Shown here in pieces: positions 2,887-54,925 of a DNA stretch of 54,925 bases (position 1 is its first letter; each line of letters begins with the position of its first letter). The position numbers and the translations under genes were made by a program. Where the stretch lies: the IMG/VR virus record IMGVR_UViG_3300034107_000498, positions 1 to 54,925 of that record. One strand, written 5' to 3'. Below the pieces are notes generated by a model. That model saw nothing but the letters and a program-made list of their open reading frames with translations, was not told the DNA's origin and searched no databases. The DNA comes from a virus.

Positions 2887-3139
2887 AGCAGAAGTTTGGT
2901 CGCAAGAAAATTGTCCTGCCTGTCAAGAAGCTAAACGCTTACTTACTTCATATGCTATTGAATATGATGAATGTATGATTGGTATGGGCACATACACTAA
3001 AAAAGATTTAATTGAAAAAGTACCTAATGCCCGAAGCGTTCCACAAGTTTTTATTGGTGGTGAGTATATAGGCGGGTTACCAGAACTAAAAAAGAGACTA
3101 CTCGTAAATGATAACTATAAAACAACTACGATGGGCTAA
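2861..3139 (+). CDS. Glutaredoxin
   Basis: A 92-residue thioredoxin-fold protein. The active-site motif CPAC lies at residues 18-21, and the cis-proline motif SVPQVFIGG occurs in the second half, followed by GEYIGG for glutathione binding. It probably reduces disulfides in phage or host enzymes. Ribonucleotide reductase is the classical glutaredoxin client, although class II enzymes often use thioredoxin. The start has AAAGGAG 10 nt upstream. The gene overlaps the gp47-like gene by 26 nt and the gp46-like gene by 32 nt, so it is embedded in the recombination operon. Confidence 0.92.
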   Translation: MQTKLKLNRAEVWSQENCPACQEAKRLLTSYAIEYDECMIGMGTYTKKDLIEKVPNARSVPQVFIGGEYIGGLPELKKRLLVNDNYKTTTMG

Positions 3140-4904
3140 TGCCTTTAGCTACGGAAAAGATAATAAGATTGATTTTATTTCAGCTCCACTTACACAATTA
3201 GTAGGGCGTAATGGGCACGGTAAAAGTTCTATTGCCCTTATTCTAGAAGAAGTATTATTTAATAAAAATTCAAAAGGTATTAAGAAAGCAGATATCCTTA
3301 ACCGACACATTAAAGATAAGTCGTATAGTATTGAACTAGACTTTAATCGAGATGATGTAGACTATACAATTAAGTCTAGTCGCGGCACTGCACAAATAGT
3401 AAAACTATTTAAAGAAGGTGTAGACATAAGTGCACATACGGCAACAGCAACATATAAAATGATCGAAGATATTTTAGGCTTCGATCATAAAAGCTTTGCA
3501 CAAATTGTTTATCAGTCAAATGCATCTAGTCTAGAGTTCTTAACTGCACCTGATACTGCTCGTAAAAAGTTTCTTATTGAAATCCTTAATTTAGGTAAGT
3601 ATACCCGTGCTGCTGAGGTATTTAAAGAAGTAAGTACCCAACTTACAAAAGATATTACAGCCGTACAATCACAAGTAAATACTGTGGCAAGCTGGTTAAA
3701 TAAATATGAGAAAACCGATTTAACACTAAAAGAAATTATTGCAAGTCCTGAGTTAAATACTGTGATAATAACAGAAGCTGCTACGCTAGATTCTAGCATA
3801 AACAGTATTGAGTCTACTAATAAAAAGATTTCTCAAAACAATACTTACAAGCAGCTACAGTCAAAGATTAAATTACTGCCAATTCCTGAAAAGCCTGAAG
3901 AAGGCGTAGAAAGCTATCAAGCAGAAGTAGCAAAACTATCTAAAACAGTTAGTGATGCTCAAGCTTTTGTTTTAAAAATGAAAGCACTACACGGAACCTG
4001 CCCTACTTGTTTATCAGATATTGACGAAGAAAAAGTAGCTGAATTAATTGAAGAAAAAACTGGAGAAGCTGAAATAGCTGCTGTAGAAACTATGAGTTAT
4101 ACTCAAAAAATAGTTCAAATTAAACAACAGAAAACAGCTTGGCAAGAAGCTCAAAAATCTCAAGAAGATTGGGAAAAGTATCATGCTTTAATTGATACAG
4201 AGTTACCAGAGATATTACTAGACAAACAAACCCTACAACAACAGTTTACAGAATTACAAAATTCAATTGCTGCTACTAAACGTAAAATTGTTGAAGCAGA
4301 GCAATATAATAAAGAAGTAACTGCACACAACACTAAAGTAGATTTAGTATCAAAACAATTGGTTGAAATGAACCAAGAACTAGAAACTTATAGTGGTAAA
4401 TTGCATGAGTTAAGCGAAAGAATGAGTATTTTAAATGTTTTAACAAAAACATTTAGTACAACAGGTTTAGTAGCCTATAAAATTGAGAGTTTAGTAAAAG
4501 ACTTAGAAGAAATTACAAATAAATATTTGGTTGATCTAAGTGATGGAAGATTTCAAATTGGTTTCAAAATTAGTGCTAGCGACAAATTAAATGTTGTTAT
4601 TACTGATAATGGAAAAGATATTGAAATACTGGCTCTTAGTGGTGGTGAGAAAGCAAGAGTTAATGTAGCTACTTTATTAGCTATTAGAAAATTAATGCAA
4701 ACATTATCCAGTTCTAGAATCAATCTATTAATACTGGATGAAACTGTGGAAACACTCGATACTGACGGAAAAGAAAAGTTAGTAGAAGTGCTACTACAAG
4801 AAGAACATTTAAATACATTCTTAGTAAGTCATGGCTTCAGCCATCCACTACTAGAAAAAATTAATGTTATTAAACGTAACAACATATCCAAAATAGAGGT
4901 ATAA
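3108..4904 (+). CDS. SbcC/Rad50-like ATPase subunit (T4 gp46-like)
   Basis: A 598-residue SMC-like ATPase. Walker A is GRNGHGKSS (33-41). The ABC signature LSGGEK is at 510-515 and Walker B at about 540-545 (LLILDE, D544-E545). Between them are two long coiled-coil arms split by a zinc-hook CPTC at 298-301, through which two molecules can dimerise. Together with the gp47-like subunit it forms the end-resection nuclease. The start codon begins inside the glutaredoxin gene, and the N-terminus (MITIKQLRWANAFSYG) matches the usual beginning of this family. The length is close to that of T4 gp46. Nothing is missing. Confidence 0.95.
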   Translation: MITIKQLRWANAFSYGKDNKIDFISAPLTQLVGRNGHGKSSIALILEEVLFNKNSKGIKKADILNRHIKDKSYSIELDFNRDDVDYTIKSSRGTAQIVKLFKEGVDISAHTATATYKMIEDILGFDHKSFAQIVYQSNASSLEFLTAPDTARKKFLIEILNLGKYTRAAEVFKEVSTQLTKDITAVQSQVNTVASWLNKYEKTDLTLKEIIASPELNTVIITEAATLDSSINSIESTNKKISQNNTYKQLQSKIKLLPIPEKPEEGVESYQAEVAKLSKTVSDAQAFVLKMKALHGTCPTCLSDIDEEKVAELIEEKTGEAEIAAVETMSYTQKIVQIKQQKTAWQEAQKSQEDWEKYHALIDTELPEILLDKQTLQQQFTELQNSIAATKRKIVEAEQYNKEVTAHNTKVDLVSKQLVEMNQELETYSGKLHELSERMSILNVLTKTFSTTGLVAYKIESLVKDLEEITNKYLVDLSDGRFQIGFKISASDKLNVVITDNGKDIEILALSGGEKARVNVATLLAIRKLMQTLSSSRINLLILDETVETLDTDGKEKLVEVLLQEEHLNTFLVSHGFSHPLLEKINVIKRNNISKIEV

Positions 4905-7367: not shown

Positions 7368-9332
7368 ATGGCATTTAGCACAAGAGCGCAAGTAATAACA
7401 CGTCGTACATATAATAGACCAACTTCAGACGACGGAAAACAATTTGAAACGTGGCAAGAAACAGTAGCCCGAGTTATTGATCACCAAGAATGGTTGTGGC
7501 AACGCGCTGCTAAGCGAGATCTAACAGATGTAGAATATTCAGAACTTTATGATCTTGAACAGCTGATGCTGGATCGTAAAGTAGCTATGAGTGGTCGTAC
7601 TCTTTGGTTAGGCGGCACTGATGTAGCTAAAACTCGTGAAGCTTCACAATTTAATTGCAGCTTTACTCATGTAGAGACTGTATATGATGTAGTAGACTGC
7701 TTATGGCTTTTACTGCAAGGATGCGGAGTAGGATTTAAACCAATTGTTGGTACTTTAAATGGTTTTTCAAAGCCGATTAAAAATATCCGTGTAGTACGTA
7801 GTACTCGCACAGCCAAAGGTGGAAATGAGCACAATACTGAAACATTTGATCAAGAAACTAAAACGTGGACTATTCAAGTTGGGGATTCTGCAGAAGCCTG
7901 GGCAAAATCTATCGGTAAGCTTATTGCTGGTAAGTACGCTGCTGATAGTCTCGTACTCGACTTTAGTCAGCTACGCCCTGCTGGGGAAAGGTTAAAAGGC
8001 TATGGATGGATTTCAAGTGGAGACACTGCTATATCAACTGCATATGTGGCTATTGCAAACATCCTTAATGGGCGCGCTGATAGTTTACTTACTAGGATGG
8101 ATATTCTCGACATTGTTAATCATCTTGGCACTATTCTTAGCAGTCGCCGTAGTGCAGAAATTGCTTTGTTCGACTATGGACAACCCGAATGGGAAGAATT
8201 TGCTGTAGCTAAAAAAGACTGGTGGTTGTACAATAACTCACACCGCCAACAATCTAACAATTCACTAGTATTTAAAGAAAAACCGCTAAAAGCTGACTTG
8301 CAAAAGATTTTTGATCTAATGCTAGAAGCAGGCGGTTCAGAACCAGGATTTATCAATGAAGTTGAAGCTCTCCGTCGCGCTCCATGGTTCAAAGGTGCAA
8401 ACCCTTGCGTGGAAATCTTACTCGGTAATAAATCATTTTGTAATCTTACCGAAACAGACATTGCTAAATTTAAAGGCGATACCGCTGGACTTCACAACGC
8501 CATCAGGCTTGCAGCTCGCGCTAACTATCGCCAAACTTGTGTAAACTTACAAGACGGGATTTTACAAGAATCTTGGCACTTAAATAACTACTTTATGCGT
8601 TTGTGCGGAGTTGGTTTAACAGGTATTGCTAAACGCCCTGATATGAATGGTTACGACTATGAGTATTTGAAGCGTACTGCAACTGGTGCTGCTATTGGCA
8701 TGGCTCAAGAACTAGATTTACCTAGTCCCAAGAATATTACTTGTGTTAAGCCTAGTGGAACATTGTCCAAGATTATGGATACCACAGAAGGAATTCACAA
8801 GCCTCTAGGAAAGTATATTTTTAATAATGTTCAATTTAGTAAATTTGACCCTATTGTTGAAGTACTGCGCGATGCTAATTATAACGTTGTTAATCACCCC
8901 ACTGATGATAGCGGTGTACTTATTACATTCCCTGTTGAGTGGATTGATGTTCCTTTCCATAAAGTTAATGGAAAAGAAGTCAACCTTGACACAGCAATCG
9001 AACAACTCGAAAAGTATAAGTTAATCCAAACTTCATGGACTCAGCAAAACACCTCAGTAACAATTAGCTATGATCCTAGTGAAGTCCCTGCAATTATTGA
9101 CTGGTTATTAGATAACTGGGATTGTTATGTAGGTGTTTCATTCATCTATCGTACTGATCCTACTAAAACAGCTAAAGATCTCGGATACTTATACTTACCA
9201 CAAGAAGTTGTGGATGAGCAAACATTCCGTAATTATGTTCAACAATTAAGCCCAGTAAGCCTAGAAAATGCCAATAGTTTTGATGAAATTATGGGCGAAG
9301 AATGTTCAACGGGAAGTTGTCCTATCCGATAA
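7368..9332 (+). CDS. Class II (adenosylcobalamin-dependent) ribonucleoside-triphosphate reductase
   Basis: A 654-residue protein resembling the monomeric RtpR/NrdJ type. The redox pair corresponds to C97 (FNCS) and C358 (SFCNLTE). The finger-loop cysteine is C347 in NPCVEI, with E349 nearby. The C-terminal shuttle cysteines are C646 and C651 in the ECSTGSCPIR tail. These match the catalytic arrangement of the Lactobacillus leichmannii enzyme, though this protein is shorter than that roughly 740-residue homologue. It makes deoxyribonucleotides and needs coenzyme B12 from the host. AAGGAAA precedes the ATG. A homing endonuclease gene follows. Confidence 0.93.
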   Translation: MAFSTRAQVITRRTYNRPTSDDGKQFETWQETVARVIDHQEWLWQRAAKRDLTDVEYSELYDLEQLMLDRKVAMSGRTLWLGGTDVAKTREASQFNCSFTHVETVYDVVDCLWLLLQGCGVGFKPIVGTLNGFSKPIKNIRVVRSTRTAKGGNEHNTETFDQETKTWTIQVGDSAEAWAKSIGKLIAGKYAADSLVLDFSQLRPAGERLKGYGWISSGDTAISTAYVAIANILNGRADSLLTRMDILDIVNHLGTILSSRRSAEIALFDYGQPEWEEFAVAKKDWWLYNNSHRQQSNNSLVFKEKPLKADLQKIFDLMLEAGGSEPGFINEVEALRRAPWFKGANPCVEILLGNKSFCNLTETDIAKFKGDTAGLHNAIRLAARANYRQTCVNLQDGILQESWHLNNYFMRLCGVGLTGIAKRPDMNGYDYEYLKRTATGAAIGMAQELDLPSPKNITCVKPSGTLSKIMDTTEGIHKPLGKYIFNNVQFSKFDPIVEVLRDANYNVVNHPTDDSGVLITFPVEWIDVPFHKVNGKEVNLDTAIEQLEKYKLIQTSWTQQNTSVTISYDPSEVPAIIDWLLDNWDCYVGVSFIYRTDPTKTAKDLGYLYLPQEVVDEQTFRNYVQQLSPVSLENANSFDEIMGEECSTGSCPIR

Positions 9333-11818: not shown

Positions 11819-12322
11819 ATGGATCAAAGACAAAGACAAAGTATGCCTTTTGGTTGGCCTATGGCTCCATTTATACCTGCCATAATGCCTGCTCCTATAG
11901 TGCCTTTTTGTCCTCCTGTGTTAGATGATTGTGACTTAGTTATTAACAGTAACATTATAGGACCTCCTGGACCTCCTGGACCTCCTGGACCTCCTGGACC
12001 TCAAGGTGAACCAGGACCCCAAGGCCCTGCTGGCAGTTTAGCAGATGTTCCTGTTACACTAATAGACGAAGCAACATATATTCCAGATTTAACAGAATAT
12101 TTTTTAGGTGTTATTTATGATGGTTCGGTTACGATTACTTTACCTGCGGGTACTCTGGGCAAAGTTTATGTTGTCAAAGATGCTGTTGGAGACGCTAACA
12201 CGAATCCGATTACTGTGGTAGCTACTGGTTCGACTATTGATAGTTTAACCAATTATGTATTAAACACAGATTGGGGATCTATTAGTTTAATTTACAACGG
12301 TATAGAATGGAACGTAGTATGA
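11819..12322 (+). CDS. Collagen-like phage protein
   Basis: A 167-residue protein with a Pro-rich N-terminus (about 8-35) and a collagen-type stretch of eight Gly-X-Y triplets at residues 48-71 (four GPP, then GPQ, GEP, GPQ, GPA). The GPP part is encoded by an exact 9-bp type DNA repeat near 11960-12000. The C-terminal domain (about 75-167) is beta-rich and ends SLIYNGIEWNVV. Phage collagen-like segments form trimeric triple helices in fibres or capsid decorations. The next two genes share domain motifs with this one, so the three may be a set of surface proteins. No promoter is visible between the terminator and this gene. Confidence 0.85.
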   Translation: MDQRQRQSMPFGWPMAPFIPAIMPAPIVPFCPPVLDDCDLVINSNIIGPPGPPGPPGPPGPQGEPGPQGPAGSLADVPVTLIDEATYIPDLTEYFLGVIYDGSVTITLPAGTLGKVYVVKDAVGDANTNPITVVATGSTIDSLTNYVLNTDWGSISLIYNGIEWNVV

Positions 12323-12883: not shown

Positions 12884-13288
12884 ATGGCATTTAATAGCCC
12901 ATTAAGTTCAACCACTAGTTACGGAGTGGTTAAGGTTGGTAACGGTGTAAACGTAACCAACGGAGTTATTTCTGTAGTAGGAAATGGCGTAGTTAATACA
13001 ACATTAGTTAACAATGCAGCAAGCCCTTATACACTTGATAGTGCTGCTGTAACTCCCAACTATTACCTTGGTGTAGAAGGTACCGGCGCAGCAATTAGCA
13101 TATTATTAACAGCGGGTACAGAAGGCCGAGTAGTTGTAATTAAATCAGAAGCAGGACAAACCAGCGATATTACAATTACTCCTAACGGTGCAGAAACTAT
13201 TGAAAACACAGCTACTTATACAATATTAGCTGCAACAGACGGCGCAGTTACATTAATATTTAGCGGCACAAACTGGAACGCTGTATAA
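12884..13288 (+). CDS. Virion surface-type protein related to both upstream neighbours
   Basis: A 134-residue protein with AAAAGGAAAA before the ATG. Its N-terminus (PLSSTTSYGVVKVGNGVNV) matches that of the preceding gene, while its C-terminus (VTLIFSGTNWNAV) matches the end of the collagen-like protein. The middle region (TPNYYLGVEGTGAAISILLTA) also parallels the C-domain of the collagen-like protein. It is therefore a shuffled combination of modules from both neighbours. It is probably beta-structured and secreted into the virion rather than catalytic. Its stop overlaps the Dps-like start. Confidence 0.75.
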   Translation: MAFNSPLSSTTSYGVVKVGNGVNVTNGVISVVGNGVVNTTLVNNAASPYTLDSAAVTPNYYLGVEGTGAAISILLTAGTEGRVVVIKSEAGQTSDITITPNGAETIENTATYTILAATDGAVTLIFSGTNWNAV

Positions 13289-13725
13289 TGGAAGAACTAC
13301 ACACAGCCCTTAAAAAGGCTTTTGCAACAACCTATGCGTTTTTAGTAAAAGCAGAAAATTTTCATTGGAATGTAACTGGTGTTAACTTTGTGCAATATCA
13401 CAAATTGTTTGGTGAAATTTACGACGAAGTTGAAGACGAACTAGACGATTTTGCTGAAACACTACGTGCACAAAGTATTTATGTGCACGCAAGTTTTCAA
13501 CATTTAAAAGAAATGTCTGCTGTAGAAGATACACTAGAAATTTTACCTGCAAAAGAAATGTTGCGAGTACTTTATATAGATAATGTTAAAGTACATGAAA
13601 CATTATTAACAGCATATCAGTTAGCTGAAACTTATAGAAAACCAGACTTATGTGCTTTTTTAAGTGAACGTATAGAAGAACACCGTAAACACGGTTGGAA
13701 ACTTTTTTCAAGCCTGGAACCATAA
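13288..13725 (+). CDS. dps: Dps-like mini-ferritin
   Basis: A 145-residue four-helix protein of the Dps family. The inter-subunit ferroxidase ligands are all in place: H26 in FHWNVTG, H38 in QYHKLF, D53 and E57 in ELDDFAE, with the standard spacing (12, 15 and 4 residues). Dps dodecamers oxidise Fe(II) with peroxide, store iron and shield DNA. In an infected cell it could protect phage DNA from oxidative damage or hold iron, which is of note because a heme oxygenase elsewhere in this genome would release iron. The start overlaps the stop of the surface protein (TAATG), so translation is coupled. No Lys-rich N-terminal DNA-binding tail is present. Confidence 0.93.
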   Translation: MEELHTALKKAFATTYAFLVKAENFHWNVTGVNFVQYHKLFGEIYDEVEDELDDFAETLRAQSIYVHASFQHLKEMSAVEDTLEILPAKEMLRVLYIDNVKVHETLLTAYQLAETYRKPDLCAFLSERIEEHRKHGWKLFSSLEP

Positions 13726-14400: not shown

Positions 14401-15087
14401 TTAGTCTCTATAAGCTAAAATAATCTGTTTACACATTTTAGATCTGACAATATCATCATCCATGAATCTTACGACTTCAATGTCTGGGATACGATCTAGT
14501 CTGTGAATTGCATCTGATAGTCCTGAGTCAGGAATATCTGCTTGATCTACGTCGCCACTAATAATCATTTTACAGTTTTTACCAATGCGTGATAGCAGCA
14601 TTTTCATTTCTTCTTTTGTGGCATTTTGTGCTTCATCTAAGAGAACAATGCAATTGTCAAAAGTTGCACCTCGCATAAAGCCCAGTGGCTTAGGCTCAAT
14701 CGTTTTTGCTTTTAGTGCGTACTCGTAAAACCCTTTTCCAAGGCTACGAGCAAATACGTTATCAAAAGGTTCTAGATAAGGAGCATACTTCTCCTCTAGT
14801 GTACCTGGTAAAAATCCTAGCCCACGTCCTGTTTCTACGTTGGGTCTAGTCAGAATTATTTTCTGAATACGTCTATGAAAGAGTTCTCCCGCAGCATATG
14901 TTGCTGCTACATACGTCTTACCTGTTCCAGCACTTCCTACACCAAATACTATTTGATTAGATTGAATTGCTCTTAGGTATTCTGCCTGTATAAAGTTTAG
15001 GGGTTTTACGTCTGTAAATCCATACTCTACTGGGTTACGTTCCAATTGAATTACATTGTCGCGTCTTGCTCTTTTACCACTTGCCAT
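14401..15087 (-). CDS. phoH: PhoH-like ATPase
   Basis: A 228-residue P-loop ATPase. Walker A is GSAGTGKT (51-58), the conserved block KIILTRPNVETGRGLGFLPG lies at 76-95 with the PhoH-type segment EKYAPYLEPFDN next to it, and Walker B is VLLDEAQNA (148-156). The core is complete and has no extra nuclease domain. PhoH is a helicase-like ATPase, often phosphate-responsive in bacteria and common in aquatic phages; its role in phage infection is debated. A perfect promoter lies about 43 bp upstream and AAGGAAG precedes the ATG. This gene has its own promoter, separate from the lysis genes next to it. Confidence 0.95.
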   Translation of the reverse strand: MASGKRARRDNVIQLERNPVEYGFTDVKPLNFIQAEYLRAIQSNQIVFGVGSAGTGKTYVAATYAAGELFHRRIQKIILTRPNVETGRGLGFLPGTLEEKYAPYLEPFDNVFARSLGKGFYEYALKAKTIEPKPLGFMRGATFDNCIVLLDEAQNATKEEMKMLLSRIGKNCKMIISGDVDQADIPDSGLSDAIHRLDRIPDIEVVRFMDDDIVRSKMCKQIILAYRD

Positions 15088-18450: not shown

Positions 18451-18545
18451 TATTTAAGCCCTCCGTAATGATACCAGTAATCTACCCATTGCTGCTCATA
18501 CTTCAGGAAATAATTCTTTATGTATGTAATCGTGGACTTGATCAT
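18450..18545 (-). CDS. Possible 31-residue protein bridging pcyX-like gene and i-spanin
   Basis: An ORF that starts inside the 3' end of the bilin reductase gene (50 nt overlap) and ends with a TAATG shared with the i-spanin start. It encodes a Tyr/Trp-rich peptide (first half KSTITYIKNYF, second half WVDYWYHYGGLK). AGGA lies 7 nt before the ATG. It may be a real microprotein, or serve only as a coupling leader for the spanin. Evidence is the exact coupling; no homologue is known to me. Confidence 0.4.
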   Translation of the reverse strand: MIKSTITYIKNYFLKYEQQWVDYWYHYGGLK

Positions 18546-19182
18546 CGTTAAATCCTAGTGTTTTCAATACTCTGGGAGTATGTGGGTTACATTTTTGTTG
18601 CTGACAGTAATAATTTTGTTTTTCTGTAAAATTATTCTGTGTTACCATATCCTCATATTTTAATGCTGGGCGATATTTTGATATGTTATCTAAGTAGTAA
18701 ATTAACGACTTCTTGGATATTTCTAATATTATACTCATTTCAAAATCAGTATTAATATTTCCAGCAGCAACCATGCGGTTTGAAAATATATTACGTGCCC
18801 ATTCAGGCAGTTCTCGTGGCTTTGCCCACGAGGTAGGTTCTACAAACTCTTGAAACCATTTGCACATTGGGTGCTCAGGGTCGCCTGTAGGTGAAAAATC
18901 TAAAAACGCTCCTGTGATCTTATTTGTTCCTGCTACAATGTCAAAGCCGTAAATTGGGGCTGCATCGTAAACGTGCGGGAATATACACAAGTGCATCATA
19001 TAAAGTTTTTTGGATTCTGACACGTCAATAACATCTAAGTTACCACGTCGGATCCAAGCACTAGAAAAATTCTTAGTGTACCAACCAGAATCGTATTCTG
19101 TTGGCAAAGGAAAAGCTCGTGCTGCAAGAATTGTTTCCAATTCTTGTGCATGAGCTTTTAGTTTACTGAATATTGTACTCAT
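18496..19182 (-). CDS. pcyX: Ferredoxin-dependent bilin reductase, PcyX-like
   Basis: A 228-residue single-domain enzyme. Family motifs are clear: HLCIFP (64-69), PIYGFDIVAG (76-85), GAFLDFSPTG (91-100), PRELPEWARNIFS (122-134) and YYCQQQ (191-196). H64 and D81 are spaced 17 apart and match the catalytic His88 and Asp105 of PcyA. The Glu of the PcyA triad appears replaced by Asp (D53), as described for phage PcyX, and N199 stands where PcyA and PebS have a second Asp. PcyX reduces biliverdin by four electrons to phycoerythrobilin. The exact product here is inferred. It overlaps the heme oxygenase gene by 20 nt and needs host ferredoxin. Confidence 0.9.
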   Translation of the reverse strand: MSTIFSKLKAHAQELETILAARAFPLPTEYDSGWYTKNFSSAWIRRGNLDVIDVSESKKLYMMHLCIFPHVYDAAPIYGFDIVAGTNKITGAFLDFSPTGDPEHPMCKWFQEFVEPTSWAKPRELPEWARNIFSNRMVAAGNINTDFEMSIILEISKKSLIYYLDNISKYRPALKYEDMVTQNNFTEKQNYYCQQQKCNPHTPRVLKTLGFNDDQVHDYIHKELFPEV

Positions 19183-19702
19183 TGGCTAACTCTGTAAATA
19201 GTTCAATAGCAAAAGCAAAACATTCGTTGGCTTCTGCAGCCATTGATATATCTAATTTTTCACGAAGTGCGGTAATTAACTCGCTGCGATTTTCAAAATC
19301 ATACATTGTAGTAGTGCCAGGAACAACACGTTTAATCATCTGACCGCCGTAAAGGTCACCCATATGACGAACATATAAGTGCGCTAGTAATTGACTATCA
19401 GTTAAATTTCGTGTGGTTATATATTGAATATATTTTTGGGTACTAGTATACGTTGTTGTTTTGCACTTTGGTAAATTTTCAAAGTCTGCTAATATTTTTT
19501 TGTTACGCTCTATTCCAGTCAAGCCACTTAAAAGGCCTCGGCTGTTAGCCACGGCCTCAAGTGTTTGATAAATTGCGTGTTGATTAAACAAAAAGTCAGC
19601 ATAAATATTTTCAGAAATATTACCGCTTAACAATAGTTTTGTAAAAGATTGTTGTTCAGCTAACACATGGTTTTCATGTGTTAGTGTTTTTAGTGTTGTC
19701 AT
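19163..19702 (-). CDS. ho1: Heme oxygenase (biliverdin-forming)
   Basis: A 179-residue all-helical protein. The proximal heme ligand is H12 (THENHVLAEQ aligned to the canonical ATKEVHTQAE), and the distal helix carries GDLYGGQ (115-121), matching the conserved GDLSGGQ of heme oxygenases. It is shorter than the approximately 230-240 residues of cyanobacterial HO1, as other phage versions are. It should open heme to biliverdin IX-alpha, CO and Fe(II), using reductant from host ferredoxin. Its start shares a base with the previous tail-chaperone stop and has no clear ribosome site, so translation depends on coupling. Its product is the substrate of the adjacent bilin reductase. Confidence 0.93.
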   Translation of the reverse strand: MTTLKTLTHENHVLAEQQSFTKLLLSGNISENIYADFLFNQHAIYQTLEAVANSRGLLSGLTGIERNKKILADFENLPKCKTTTYTSTQKYIQYITTRNLTDSQLLAHLYVRHMGDLYGGQMIKRVVPGTTTMYDFENRSELITALREKLDISMAAEANECFAFAIELFTELANEYNIQ

Positions 19703-20067
19703 TAGGTTGGTGCTTGTGGTACTACAATTTCTGCAATAGTTGTAGCTGCTGCAAAAGTTTGTGGCATATCACGTAATTGTTGACGATAAGTTGCCCACTC
19801 AGCTTTTTTAGCTGCAGTTAGTGGGCTGTCCGCTACCTGAGTCCAATCAGATTCTTGTAATAGATGTGCTCGTAAACTACGAATACCCATATCAAGTTGA
19901 GCTTTAGTAATTTCTGGCTCCGCTGGAACAGGAATGTGCTCAATCCAGCCGAGTTCAGTTAAACCAACAGTGTCTGTTAAACCTGTTCTGGCTAAAACTT
20001 GACGATAAGGAACTAAGCTTTCTATTACTACGCCATTTACTACATAGTTAAATAATACATTATCCAT
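19702..20067 (-). CDS. Tail fibre assembly chaperone-like protein
   Basis: A 121-residue protein. The second half carries the common phage tail chaperone signature (LLQESDWTQVADSPLTAAKK, then EWATYRQQLRDMP). The first half is beta-rich and includes YVVNGVVIESLVPYRQVL. Such proteins help fold and trimerise the adjacent fibre. Its start overlaps the stop of the glycine-rich fibre as TAATG, which pairs them. It is the last tail gene before the bilin genes. Confidence 0.8.
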   Translation of the reverse strand: MDNVLFNYVVNGVVIESLVPYRQVLARTGLTDTVGLTELGWIEHIPVPAEPEITKAQLDMGIRSLRAHLLQESDWTQVADSPLTAAKKAEWATYRQQLRDMPQTFAAATTIAEIVVPQAPT

Positions 20068-20984
20068 TACATATCTCCTGTGCCAGTTGACGGAAATTTT
20101 CTACCGGTACCCCAAATAATACGAACACAGCCGCGTCCACCAACTTGTATACCGTGACCAAATGCTGAGTTGTCGCCAGGACCGCCACCGCCACCGCCGT
20201 AAAGACCGCCAGGTCTTTCGCCAGTACCATAGCTGTACCAAGGATTTTCACCCATTCTGCCGTCTTCACCACCTGATCCGCCTTTGCCGCCGTCATATGA
20301 TGTACCGGCACCTGAAGCACCTTGACCAAATGGTCCTGTACCACCACCACTAGAATAACCGTGTGTACTAGAATAGTTACCACCACCGCCAGCACCACCG
20401 CCACTGCCAGCACTTCCACCAGAGTTACCACCATTGCCAGTATATCCTCCAGCACCTCCACCAGCTTGGCTACTTGCGCCAGAACCACCGTTACCACCGC
20501 CATCACCTGTCCAAGTACCGCCACTTTTATTTGGAGAACCACCGCCTCTGACAGTAGCCGTATCAATAAAAAAGCTAGTTCCGCCAGCAGGATCAGTACC
20601 GCCTAGGTTACCACCTTTACCTACTTGAACAGTATAAGTTTTGCCCGGCTCAACTGAAATGTTGTTTTTCCAACCTAATCCACCACCACCACCACCTCCG
20701 TTACCAGACGAAGTAGCTCCACTGCTAGAAGCTCCGCCACCAATACAAACTACACATACTGAAGTAACGCCAGGCGGGCAAGTCCAAGCATAGGTACCGG
20801 CTCCAAAACCATAAAAAGCCTGGCCTACAGGTCCTGAAGGACCGCCTTCGACAGGTGGGGGTACAAAAGTAAGATTACCTTTACCATCAGTTAATAATGC
20901 TTGACCAGCAGTACCGTCTCGTAAAGGAAGTGTAAATTCAGCACCTTCTCGTCTTTGTAATTGATCTGTTACAATTTTTGTCAT
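20067..20984 (-). CDS. Glycine-rich receptor-binding tail protein
   Basis: A 305-residue protein. The first 45 residues (MTKIVTDQLQRREGAEFTLP...GQALLTDGKGNLTF) match the N-terminus of the neighbouring 308-residue fibre, suggesting the same attachment point. Residues 55-285 consist of glycine-rich runs (GGGGGG, SGGSAGSGGG) with short aromatic turns, like the polyglycine-sandwich tips of phage adhesins. The C-terminus (VGGRGCVRIIWG) is a common end for this type. It likely contacts the host receptor. The encoding DNA has strong GCC/ACC-rich complexity on the + strand that explains several misleading + strand frames. Confidence 0.85.
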   Translation of the reverse strand: MTKIVTDQLQRREGAEFTLPLRDGTAGQALLTDGKGNLTFVPPPVEGGPSGPVGQAFYGFGAGTYAWTCPPGVTSVCVVCIGGGASSSGATSSGNGGGGGGGLGWKNNISVEPGKTYTVQVGKGGNLGGTDPAGGTSFFIDTATVRGGGSPNKSGGTWTGDGGGNGGSGASSQAGGGAGGYTGNGGNSGGSAGSGGGAGGGGNYSSTHGYSSGGGTGPFGQGASGAGTSYDGGKGGSGGEDGRMGENPWYSYGTGERPGGLYGGGGGGPGDNSAFGHGIQVGGRGCVRIIWGTGRKFPSTGTGDM

Positions 20985-53284: not shown

Positions 53285-54925
53285 TCAGGTTGCTGTGTAC
53301 TTGTGTGCTGTAACAGCGTTACCTAAGTTAGTGGTAACACGTGTCATACCGGTACGGAGGCTAGCCACCATAACGCGACGCTGTGTTTCAACTAATTCTT
53401 GGGTATCAATGCGGAGACCGCGCTGGTTACCAACGATAAAGTTGCCTGGGTTAACAGCAATAGCTCCTGCAACACCAGTACCTGGGGAAGCGAACTCTGC
53501 AGAAACCAACACGGGGCTTCCACCGATTTGACCGATTTGACCGGTTAACAGTGTAGCTTGTGAGCCAACTTGATTCATTGTTTGGAAGGTTGTGTCTTCC
53601 AGCAATTGGTAATATGTATCAGTATTAATGATATAAATTACTTCAGCTGGGTCGAGACCCCAAGCACCCAAACCTTGACGCAATGTGCGCAATTTAGCAA
53701 CGTTCATACCAGCAACAACAGTGTTACCAGTGGCAGTTGTGTTAGAAGCCCAGATTGACAATCCTTTAACAGGATCAGAACCGGAACCAGCACCTAACAA
53801 GAAAGCCTTGTCAACGGCGCGAGCAACACGACGAACCATACCATCACGGATGATTGGCATCAAAGCCAACAAAGAATCTTCTTCTTCTTCGTATGCTGTA
53901 TACTCGTTTGTGGCAAGTTTATAAGCATTCAAAGTGATTTCTTTGAGAGCGTGAGTAGCAGTTGCACCAGCGGAACCACCAGCTGCACCAAGGGTAGCAG
54001 GAACGGCGCCAAACTCAGCGTTAGTAACCCAAGTAGCAGTACCTGCTTCTGGATTCACTGGGATTGTCATCACGTTGGTTTGCATAGCGATGTTGCGGAA
54101 AATAGGAGCAACAACTAAGCGACGACGAACTTCAGACTCAAGGTTCAAAGAAACTTCTTGTTCCCATGTAGCTGAAGGCACGTGAGCACCGTATTTTTGC
54201 ACTAAATCGCGGCCAAGACGTGTACCGTCGATTGACTTGCCAGCCATTTTAGCTAAGAAAACTGCCTTTTCTTTGTCACCATAAGACATACCGTCTTTGG
54301 CTTCTTGGAAAGACATTTTTGATTTTGTGATTGCTTCGATTTCTGAAGCTTTTTCTTTCAAAGAAGCCTCTAAACCAGCGATAACTGATTTGCTTGACTC
54401 TTCAGCAGTAGCTAAACGCTTCTCAACTTCGGCCATCAAGCGCTCAGCACCTGTGTCACCAGTAGAGATAGAAGCAACAGCGGCTTTAACGCGTGCATCT
54501 AATTCGGCTTCTGATTTGTCAGCAGCGGCTTTTTCGGCCAATGCTTTTGCCTGTGTATCGGCGATGGCTTTAGCAGTGAGCTCAGCCGCTTTGTTAGCTG
54601 CATCAGCCAACATTTGTTCTAATTGTTTAGGATCCATTTCCCATTCCTTTTTAATTTCGCCGATTGCTTCCGTTGAGGATTCTAGCCCTTTAGCTGAATC
54701 GCTGTCGGGTGCAAACTGCATTTTGAAAGATTTAAATTCTTCGGCTGTATCAAACGCCTTAGAAAGACTAAATAGTGTATTTTGATTAGCTGGTACTGAC
54801 ACTACTGAAATTTCGTGCAGTTCTAGCTCTTTTACCACAAACAACTCTTTGGCTGCATCATATTCCGCATCTACGATTCGGAAGCCGATACTAAATGCCG
54901 TTAAGATGCCATCTTTTACAAGATT
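53285..54925 (-). CDS. Prohead protease - scaffold - major capsid protein fusion, 5' end cut by window
   Basis: 546 residues are visible before the edge. The first 60 are the end of an HK97-type prohead protease: TAFSIGFRIVD, then LELHEISVVSVPANQNTLF. Residues 60-250 are helical, Ala/Lys/Glu-rich (KQLEQMLADAANKAAEL, AEVEKRLATAEESSK), typical of the delta scaffold domain. From about 250 the HK97-fold major capsid protein follows (ATWEQEVSLNLESEVRRRLVV ... RRVMVASLRTGMTR). The parts are usually separate or two genes, so the polyprotein is unusual. An internal ATG at 54637 has its own ribosome site. The protease active site lies outside the window. Confidence 0.9.
   Translation of the reverse strand, partial: NLVKDGILTAFSIGFRIVDAEYDAAKELFVVKELELHEISVVSVPANQNTLFSLSKAFDTAEEFKSFKMQFAPDSDSAKGLESSTEAIGEIKKEWEMDPKQLEQMLADAANKAAELTAKAIADTQAKALAEKAAADKSEAELDARVKAAVASISTGDTGAERLMAEVEKRLATAEESSKSVIAGLEASLKEKASEIEAITKSKMSFQEAKDGMSYGDKEKAVFLAKMAGKSIDGTRLGRDLVQKYGAHVPSATWEQEVSLNLESEVRRRLVVAPIFRNIAMQTNVMTIPVNPEAGTATWVTNAEFGAVPATLGAAGGSAGATATHALKEITLNAYKLATNEYTAYEEEEDSLLALMPIIRDGMVRRVARAVDKAFLLGAGSGSDPVKGLSIWASNTTATGNTVVAGMNVAKLRTLRQGLGAWGLDPAEVIYIINTDTYYQLLEDTTFQTMNQVGSQATLLTGQIGQIGGSPVLVSAEFASPGTGVAGAIAVNPGNFIVGNQRGLRIDTQELVETQRRVMVASLRTGMTRVTTNLGNAVTAHKYTAT

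What the first reader, a model, noticed from the sequence alone, without database searches (positions are those of the whole stretch)
18900..19040. Active site of the bilin reductase suggests PcyX-type four-electron chemistry
H64 and D81 match PcyA His88 and Asp105 (17 residues apart). A putative D53 replaces the Glu of the PcyA triad, and N199 stands where PcyA and PebS have a second Asp. Asp for Glu is a described trait of phage PcyX, which yields phycoerythrobilin rather than phycocyanobilin. The D53 alignment involves a one-residue gap and is my inference.
Basis: partly seen in the sequence, partly recalled or inferred. Interest (0 to 1): 0.75.

Follow-up and report, generated by a model that had tools for sequence, protein, structure and literature searches.

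The report
PcyX-type bilin reductase in T5-like phage
This phage carries a two-gene set that probably turns heme into a pink bilin pigment using an enzyme of a known phage family (PcyX), but with two unusual residues near its active site and in a kind of phage different from the marine ones described so far.

Summary
The ORF at 18496-19182 (minus, 228 aa) is a PcyX-type bilin reductase that overlaps a heme oxygenase gene by 20 nt. Closest solved structure: phage PcyX 5OWG (E 2.8e-51; PcyA 6.9e-11). H64 and D81 are confirmed as PcyA His88 and Asp105. The triad Asp was misassigned: phmmer, MAFFT and hhalign put D50, not D53, on PcyA Glu76/PcyX Asp55. Position 50 is Asp in 171 of 171 distinct IMG/VR relatives and Glu in 80 of 80 cyanobacterial and 5 of 5 cyanophage PcyA. 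N199 sits on PcyA Asn219, so PcyA has no second Asp there; for PebS the claim is plausible. The PcyX assignment stands; a phycoerythrobilin product is likely but unassayed, and the Asp is a marker rather than a shown cause. Verdict: right family, partly wrong residues; a variant of a known kind.

The parts
18496..19182 (-). PcyX-type ferredoxin-dependent bilin reductase, 228 aa
19163..19702 (-). heme oxygenase, 179 aa, 20-nt overlap with the reductase gene; His12 = Synechocystis HO1 His17, GDLYGGQ motif kept
19033..19035 (-). Asp50: counterpart of PcyA Glu76 and PcyX Asp55 (the residue the finding should have named)
19024..19026 (-). Asp53: conserved in PcyX-type relatives but not at the triad position
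18991..18993 (-). His64 = PcyA His88
18940..18942 (-). Asp81 = PcyA Asp105
19039..19041 (-). Asn48 at the position of PcyA His74 (His in 5OWG PcyX)
18526..18528 (-). Tyr219 at the position of PcyA Tyr238 (Phe in 5OWG PcyX)
18997..18999 (-). Met62 at the position of PcyA Ile86; Met in 171 of 171 PcyX-type relatives, Ile in 80 of 80 cyanobacterial PcyA
18583..18588 (-). Asn199-Pro200: Asn = PcyA Asn219, Pro where PcyA has Asp220

Best explanation
The two overlapping genes form a heme-to-bilin cassette of a T5-like phage. Heme oxygenase opens heme to biliverdin IXalpha. The reductase, a PcyX-type enzyme, then takes four electrons from a host ferredoxin and most likely makes phycoerythrobilin through 15,16-dihydrobiliverdin. 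Shown here: family, fold, the H64/D81 pair, Asp at position 50, purifying selection, heme oxygenase linkage across relatives. Inferred from characterised PcyA and PcyX: D81 protonates the substrate, H64 contacts the ring lactam, and the order and product of the reductions. Also inferred: the Asn48/Tyr219 pair of the window's subclade rearranges the second shell (the His74 water and the Glu76-Tyr238 contact of PcyA) without abolishing activity. What the phage gains is not known.
For: 5OWG PcyX is the best match by sequence (E 2.8e-51) and by profile (7.1e-87); 1.5 A rmsd over 173 aligned residues of 181. Position 50 is Asp in 171 of 171 relatives and Glu in 85 of 85 PcyA. Tree split from PcyA with 99% SH-aLRT. 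Heme oxygenase in 26 of 26 records and upstream on the same strand in 227 of 233 loci. dN/dS 0.05-0.09. PcyX makes phycoerythrobilin via 15,16-DHBV (PMC6755814; PMC13193486; passages).
Against: The window is only about 40-45% identical to the biochemically or structurally known PcyX group, lies in another subclade, and differs from it at two second-shell positions. The CB_2 phage enzyme was expected to be PcyX yet made PCB. Product choice in this family is called hard to predict (PMC13193486). Alphaproteobacterial PcyA and CB_2 are missing from my tree. No ferredoxin gene was found in 26 records, so the donor must come from a host that I could not identify.
Confidence: 0.75

Rival explanations
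1. It is a PcyA in function: biliverdin to phycocyanobilin, as found for the freshwater phage CB_2 enzyme that had been expected to be PcyX.
For: CB_2 precedent (PMC11480375, passages). Tyr219 matches PcyA Tyr238 rather than PcyX Phe. H64/D81 are shared with PcyA.
Against: CB_2 lacks Asp55, the window has it as D50; Glu76 is described as specific for PcyA and required for 18-vinyl reduction (PMC10151467, passage); the 5OWG match is far stronger; the window lies on the PcyX side of the tree.
Confidence: 0.1
2. It is a PcyX relative with altered output: Asn48/Tyr219 make it stop at 15,16-dihydrobiliverdin, or give phytochromobilin or a mixture.
For: Both changed positions belong to the PcyA proton network (PMC9800206, passages); they go together in 24 of 25 scorable Asn sequences and in 0 of 141 scorable His sequences; dN/dS is low.
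Against: The changes map to about one origin on the tree, so they may be neutral drift; the primary residues D50, H64 and D81 are intact.
Confidence: 0.12
3. The pigment is beside the point: the cassette serves heme breakdown and iron release, and the reductase only clears biliverdin. This concerns the purpose and is compatible with any product.
For: No phycobiliprotein, photosynthetic reaction centre, Fer2 ferredoxin or 5-ALA synthase match in 0 of 26 records; a ferritin/Dps-like gene is over the cut-off in 8 of 26 and is present in the window; iron supply has been proposed in print (PMC11480375, passage).
Against: Does not explain why a specific four-electron reductase is conserved; the records are fragments, so absences are weak; ferritin-like genes ring in 14 of 14 control genomes and are not specific.
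Confidence: 0.3

Closest known systems
Phage PcyX (PcyX_EBK42635, PDB 5OWG; pelagiphage Mosig homologue)
   Same: Fold, H/D pair, Asp in place of Glu76, Met at the Ile86 position, N-P at 199-200, heme oxygenase gene next to it in Mosig
   Different: About 40-45% identity in sequence, another subclade, Asn48 and Tyr219 instead of His and Phe, T5-like instead of T4-like phage
PcyA (cyanobacteria, cyanophages)
   Same: Fold, His88/Asp105 pair, Tyr at the 238 position, Asn219
   Different: Glu76 instead of Asp, no D53 insertion, Ile86, His74; 24% identity in the structural alignment
PcyA/X of freshwater phage CB_2
   Same: Phage heme oxygenase plus PcyA/X-type reductase (read in PMC11480375)
   Different: CB_2 lacks Asp55, makes PCB and carries a 5-ALA synthase gene (same passages); sequence not obtained here
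PebS (cyanophage P-SSM2)
   Same: Fold, central Asp105; product expected to be the same
   Different: Asn88 instead of His, Asp206 that is not matched by an Asp here, 13% identity

Membership tests
PcyX | Ferredoxin-dependent bilin reductase family and fold | tested here: met
   Pfam PF05996 E 3.3e-19; FDBR structures head the fold search
PcyX | Conserved His-Asp pair (PcyA His88/Asp105) | tested here: met
   H64, D81
PcyX | Asp (Asp55) in place of PcyA Glu76 | tested here: met
   D50 by three aligners
PcyX | Groups with PcyX and not PcyA in a tree | tested here: met
   99% SH-aLRT split, quick tree with long branches, without alphaproteobacterial PcyA or CB_2
PcyX | Heme oxygenase gene in the same cassette | tested here: met
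PcyX | Converts biliverdin to phycoerythrobilin via 15,16-DHBV | not testable with these tools
   needs enzyme assay
PcyA | Catalytic Glu at position 76 | tested here: not met
   Asp50
PcyA | Makes phycocyanobilin | not testable with these tools
   needs enzyme assay
PebS | Catalytic Asp pair Asp105/Asp206 | tested here: not met
   D81 present, but Asn or Pro at the second place in the two alignments; which of the two is the true counterpart is unsettled by sequence
T5-like phages (Demerecviridae relatives) | T5-type capsid and major tail proteins | tested here: met
   best matches of both proteins in T5-like records at 27-37% identity in the listed rows, My1 is Demerecviridae; formal family membership not tested

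The most novel reading that the evidence does not exclude
A clade of PcyX enzymes in T5-like phages has re-wired its second shell (His74 to Asn together with Phe to Tyr at the Tyr238 position), and this changes which bilin is made or the order of the reductions, in phages whose hosts have no phycobilisomes.
Probability: 0.15. Interest if true: 0.65.

Novelty: new variant of a known kind. Interest (0 to 1): 0.42.

Why it matters
PcyX is one of the few enzymes that make phycoerythrobilin from biliverdin alone, and what sets its product is unsettled. The Asn48/Tyr219 clade is a natural double change at two positions of the PcyA proton network, so expressing it would test directly what controls product choice. 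The heme oxygenase and reductase cassette in T5-like phages, with no phycobiliprotein, photosystem or ferredoxin gene found, sharpens the open question of why phages of hosts that probably lack phycobilisomes make bilins.

Tried and rejected
D53 as the triad residue: rejected. Sequence alignment cannot settle the PebS register: one search puts Asp206 on N199, on P200, and hhalign gave no usable match.

Bacterial PcyX: a scan of genome contigs (84,980 species) with two PcyX motifs gave 41 stretches and no relative. A second scan with one motif shared with PcyA gave 115 relatives, of which the best 80 were returned, all cyanobacterial by record title. No plasmid match. These are searches with few patterns, so absence is weak. 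I did not obtain alphaproteobacterial PcyA or CB_2.

Accessory genes: 5-ALA synthase, Fer2 ferredoxin, phycobiliprotein and photosynthetic reaction centre were each found in 0 of 26 records, which are mostly fragments. Host: not determined; no tRNA in the window.

Literature: Ledermann 2018 and 2016 are not held; what I say of the 2018 paper is recalled from its abstract. T5-like carriers of PcyX: the searches listed no paper on them, in a library that lacks most subscription papers. All held papers were seen as passages only, plus the search listings.

Dropped before counts: one search collapsed the loci then held to 171 distinct IMG/VR sequences, partial ones included (3 lack residues 199-200, 5 lack 219). 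The tree left out IMG/VR rows under 200 aa and rows over 90% alike (98 rows kept). In one search the 233 loci include repeat fetches of the same contigs; the cyanophage PcyA/PebS reference loci and the window's own locus were left out beforehand. Only 26 records (the window and 25 of the 72 loci) were searched; one search added two named phages.

Full report
The observation. The window is a virus record of 54,925 bases. The reductase is the 228-aa ORF 18496-19182 on the minus strand; the heme oxygenase ORF 19163-19702 lies directly upstream and the two overlap by 20 nt. Pfam gives Fe_bilin_red E 3.3e-19 and Heme_oxygenase E 1.2e-17. The reductase is under strong purifying selection: dN/dS 0.05-0.09 in seven comparisons with chosen relatives of 75-96% identity.

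Which family. By single-sequence search the best solved structure is phage PcyX 5OWG, E 2.8e-51, with PcyA 2D1E at 6.9e-11; by profile 7.1e-87 and 5.4e-34. The AlphaFold2 model has mean pLDDT 91.0 and pTM 0.89. Against solved structures VIA-align gives 5OWG Z 23.1, rmsd 1.5, 173 aligned of 181 residues, 37% identity; PcyA 2D1E Z 25.2, rmsd 2.4, 215 aligned, 24%; PebS 2VCK Z 18.3, rmsd 3.0, 194 aligned, 13%. The lower Z of 5OWG goes with its shorter ordered chain; Foldseek by E-value ranks a PcyA chain first and 5OWG third. In a tree of 98 sequences the six PcyA rows are split from all PcyX-type rows by a branch with 99% SH-aLRT, and the window lies with the latter, in a different subclade from 5OWG and Mosig (quick method, several long branches, with a warning that long branches meet).

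The active site. The main correction is the register of the triad Asp. RRGNLDVIDVSESKKLYMMH pairs with PcyA RKMHLEL--AKVGKGLDILH. phmmer, MAFFT and hhalign all place D50 on Glu76; D53 falls in the insertion in MAFFT and hhalign, and on Lys79 in phmmer. In 5OWG the same Asp is residue 63 of the construct; the entry numbering against the construct numbering implies an offset of 8 and hence Asp55, which PMC11480375 calls the PcyX-specific catalytic residue (passage). Residues 48 and 50 of the strand (model residues 44-54) should face one side and 53 the other, which also speaks against D53; this facing is inferred, since I had no coordinates.

Counts at these positions, over 171 distinct IMG/VR relatives, 80 cyanobacterial PcyA and 5 cyanophage PcyA: position 50 Asp 171 / Glu 80 / Glu 5; position 53 Asp 171 / gap 80 / gap 5; position 62 Met 171 / Ile 80 / Ile 3 and Val 2; position 64 His in all; position 81 Asp in all; position 199 Asn in 168 of 168 with a residue / Asn 80 / Asn 5; position 200 Pro in 168 of 168 / Asp 80 / mixed. 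The relatives were found with short patterns: some of these cover residues 61-68, the FD of residue 81 or residues 199-200, so counts there are partly selected for. None covers positions 50 or 53.

N199. PcyA has Asn219 there, binding the axial water (PMC9800206, passage); GtPEBB has Asp219 coordinating the matching water (PMC6755814, passage).

PcyA His74 and Tyr238 belong to the hydrogen-bond network around His88 and Glu76 (PMC9800206); His74 mutants of PcyA have solved structures (4EOC, 4EOD, 4EOE). In the window these positions are N48 and Y219. Of 171 relatives 27 have Asn and 144 His; of the 25 Asn sequences with residue 219 readable, 24 have Tyr and 1 (L089) Phe; all 141 His sequences with residue 219 readable have Phe. 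The ten Asn/Tyr representatives form one clade (99%), and the tree needs two changes of the residue-48 state. The coupling thus rests on little more than one origin and is not independent evidence of function.

Genetic setting. Heme oxygenase matches were found in 26 of 26 records searched. In 227 of 233 loci (repeat fetches included) it lies upstream on the same strand; 208 overlap the reductase start, 11 have gaps of 1-39 nt and 8 have gaps of 559-644 nt; in the 6 without it the reductase match starts within 26 bases of the end of the fetched DNA. His12 is kept in 160 of 160 heme oxygenases with a residue there, of 176 distinct ones. The cassette lies between a tail-fibre assembly gene (19702-20067) and genes for a spanin-like protein and an endolysin.

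The phage. Its major tail protein and capsid match T5-like phages at 27-37% identity in the listed rows; Pectobacterium phage My1, one of them, is Demerecviridae. Of the 15 records of the Asn48 group, 10 have the same tail protein family (phrog_3575), against 1 of 11 in the His48 group. T4-like Gp23 is in 0 of 15 and 3 of 11, and in both T4-like controls Mosig and P-SSM2. phrog_3575 also rings in 4 of 14 control genomes, so alone it does not prove a T5-like phage. PMC11480375 assigned its retrieved cassette contigs to pelagiphages of T4-like (myovirus) type by the gp13 tree (passages); no paper listed was about T5-like carriers.

Mechanism. D81 as proton donor, H64 at the ring lactam and ferredoxin as electron source are taken from PcyA and PcyX work; no Fer2 ferredoxin gene was found in the 26 records, so the donor is presumably the host's. 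The product, phycoerythrobilin, follows from family membership only. Against over-reading: CB_2 was expected to be PcyX and made PCB, and structure-function relations in the family are described as not reliably predictable (PMC13193486, passage).

Verdict. The enzyme is a PcyX-type member with a second-shell variation in a T5-like phage lineage; its product needs an assay.

Noticed in passing
window 13288-13725 (+): Ferritin/Dps-like gene (PF00210 E 7.5e-14); the family is over the cut-off in 8 of 26 cassette-bearing phage records. An iron-storage protein beside a heme oxygenase in one phage may be more than coincidence.
   Followed up: partly
window 53285-54844 (-): One ORF (TTG start) seems to hold both head maturation protease and major capsid protein, which lie under two annotated features in T5-like phages.
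   Followed up: no
L089: Only relative with Asn48 together with Phe219, outside the Asn/Tyr clade: a possible independent His-to-Asn change.
   Followed up: no
window 3108-4904, 7368-9332, 14401-15087: SbcC-like protein, ribonucleotide reductase with a B12-dependent-type insertion domain match, and a PhoH-like protein.
   Followed up: no
window 11819-12322 (+) and 20067-20984 (-): Collagen-like Gly-Pro-Pro repeats (PF01391, just under its cut-off) and a very glycine-rich protein next to the tail-fibre assembly gene.
   Followed up: no
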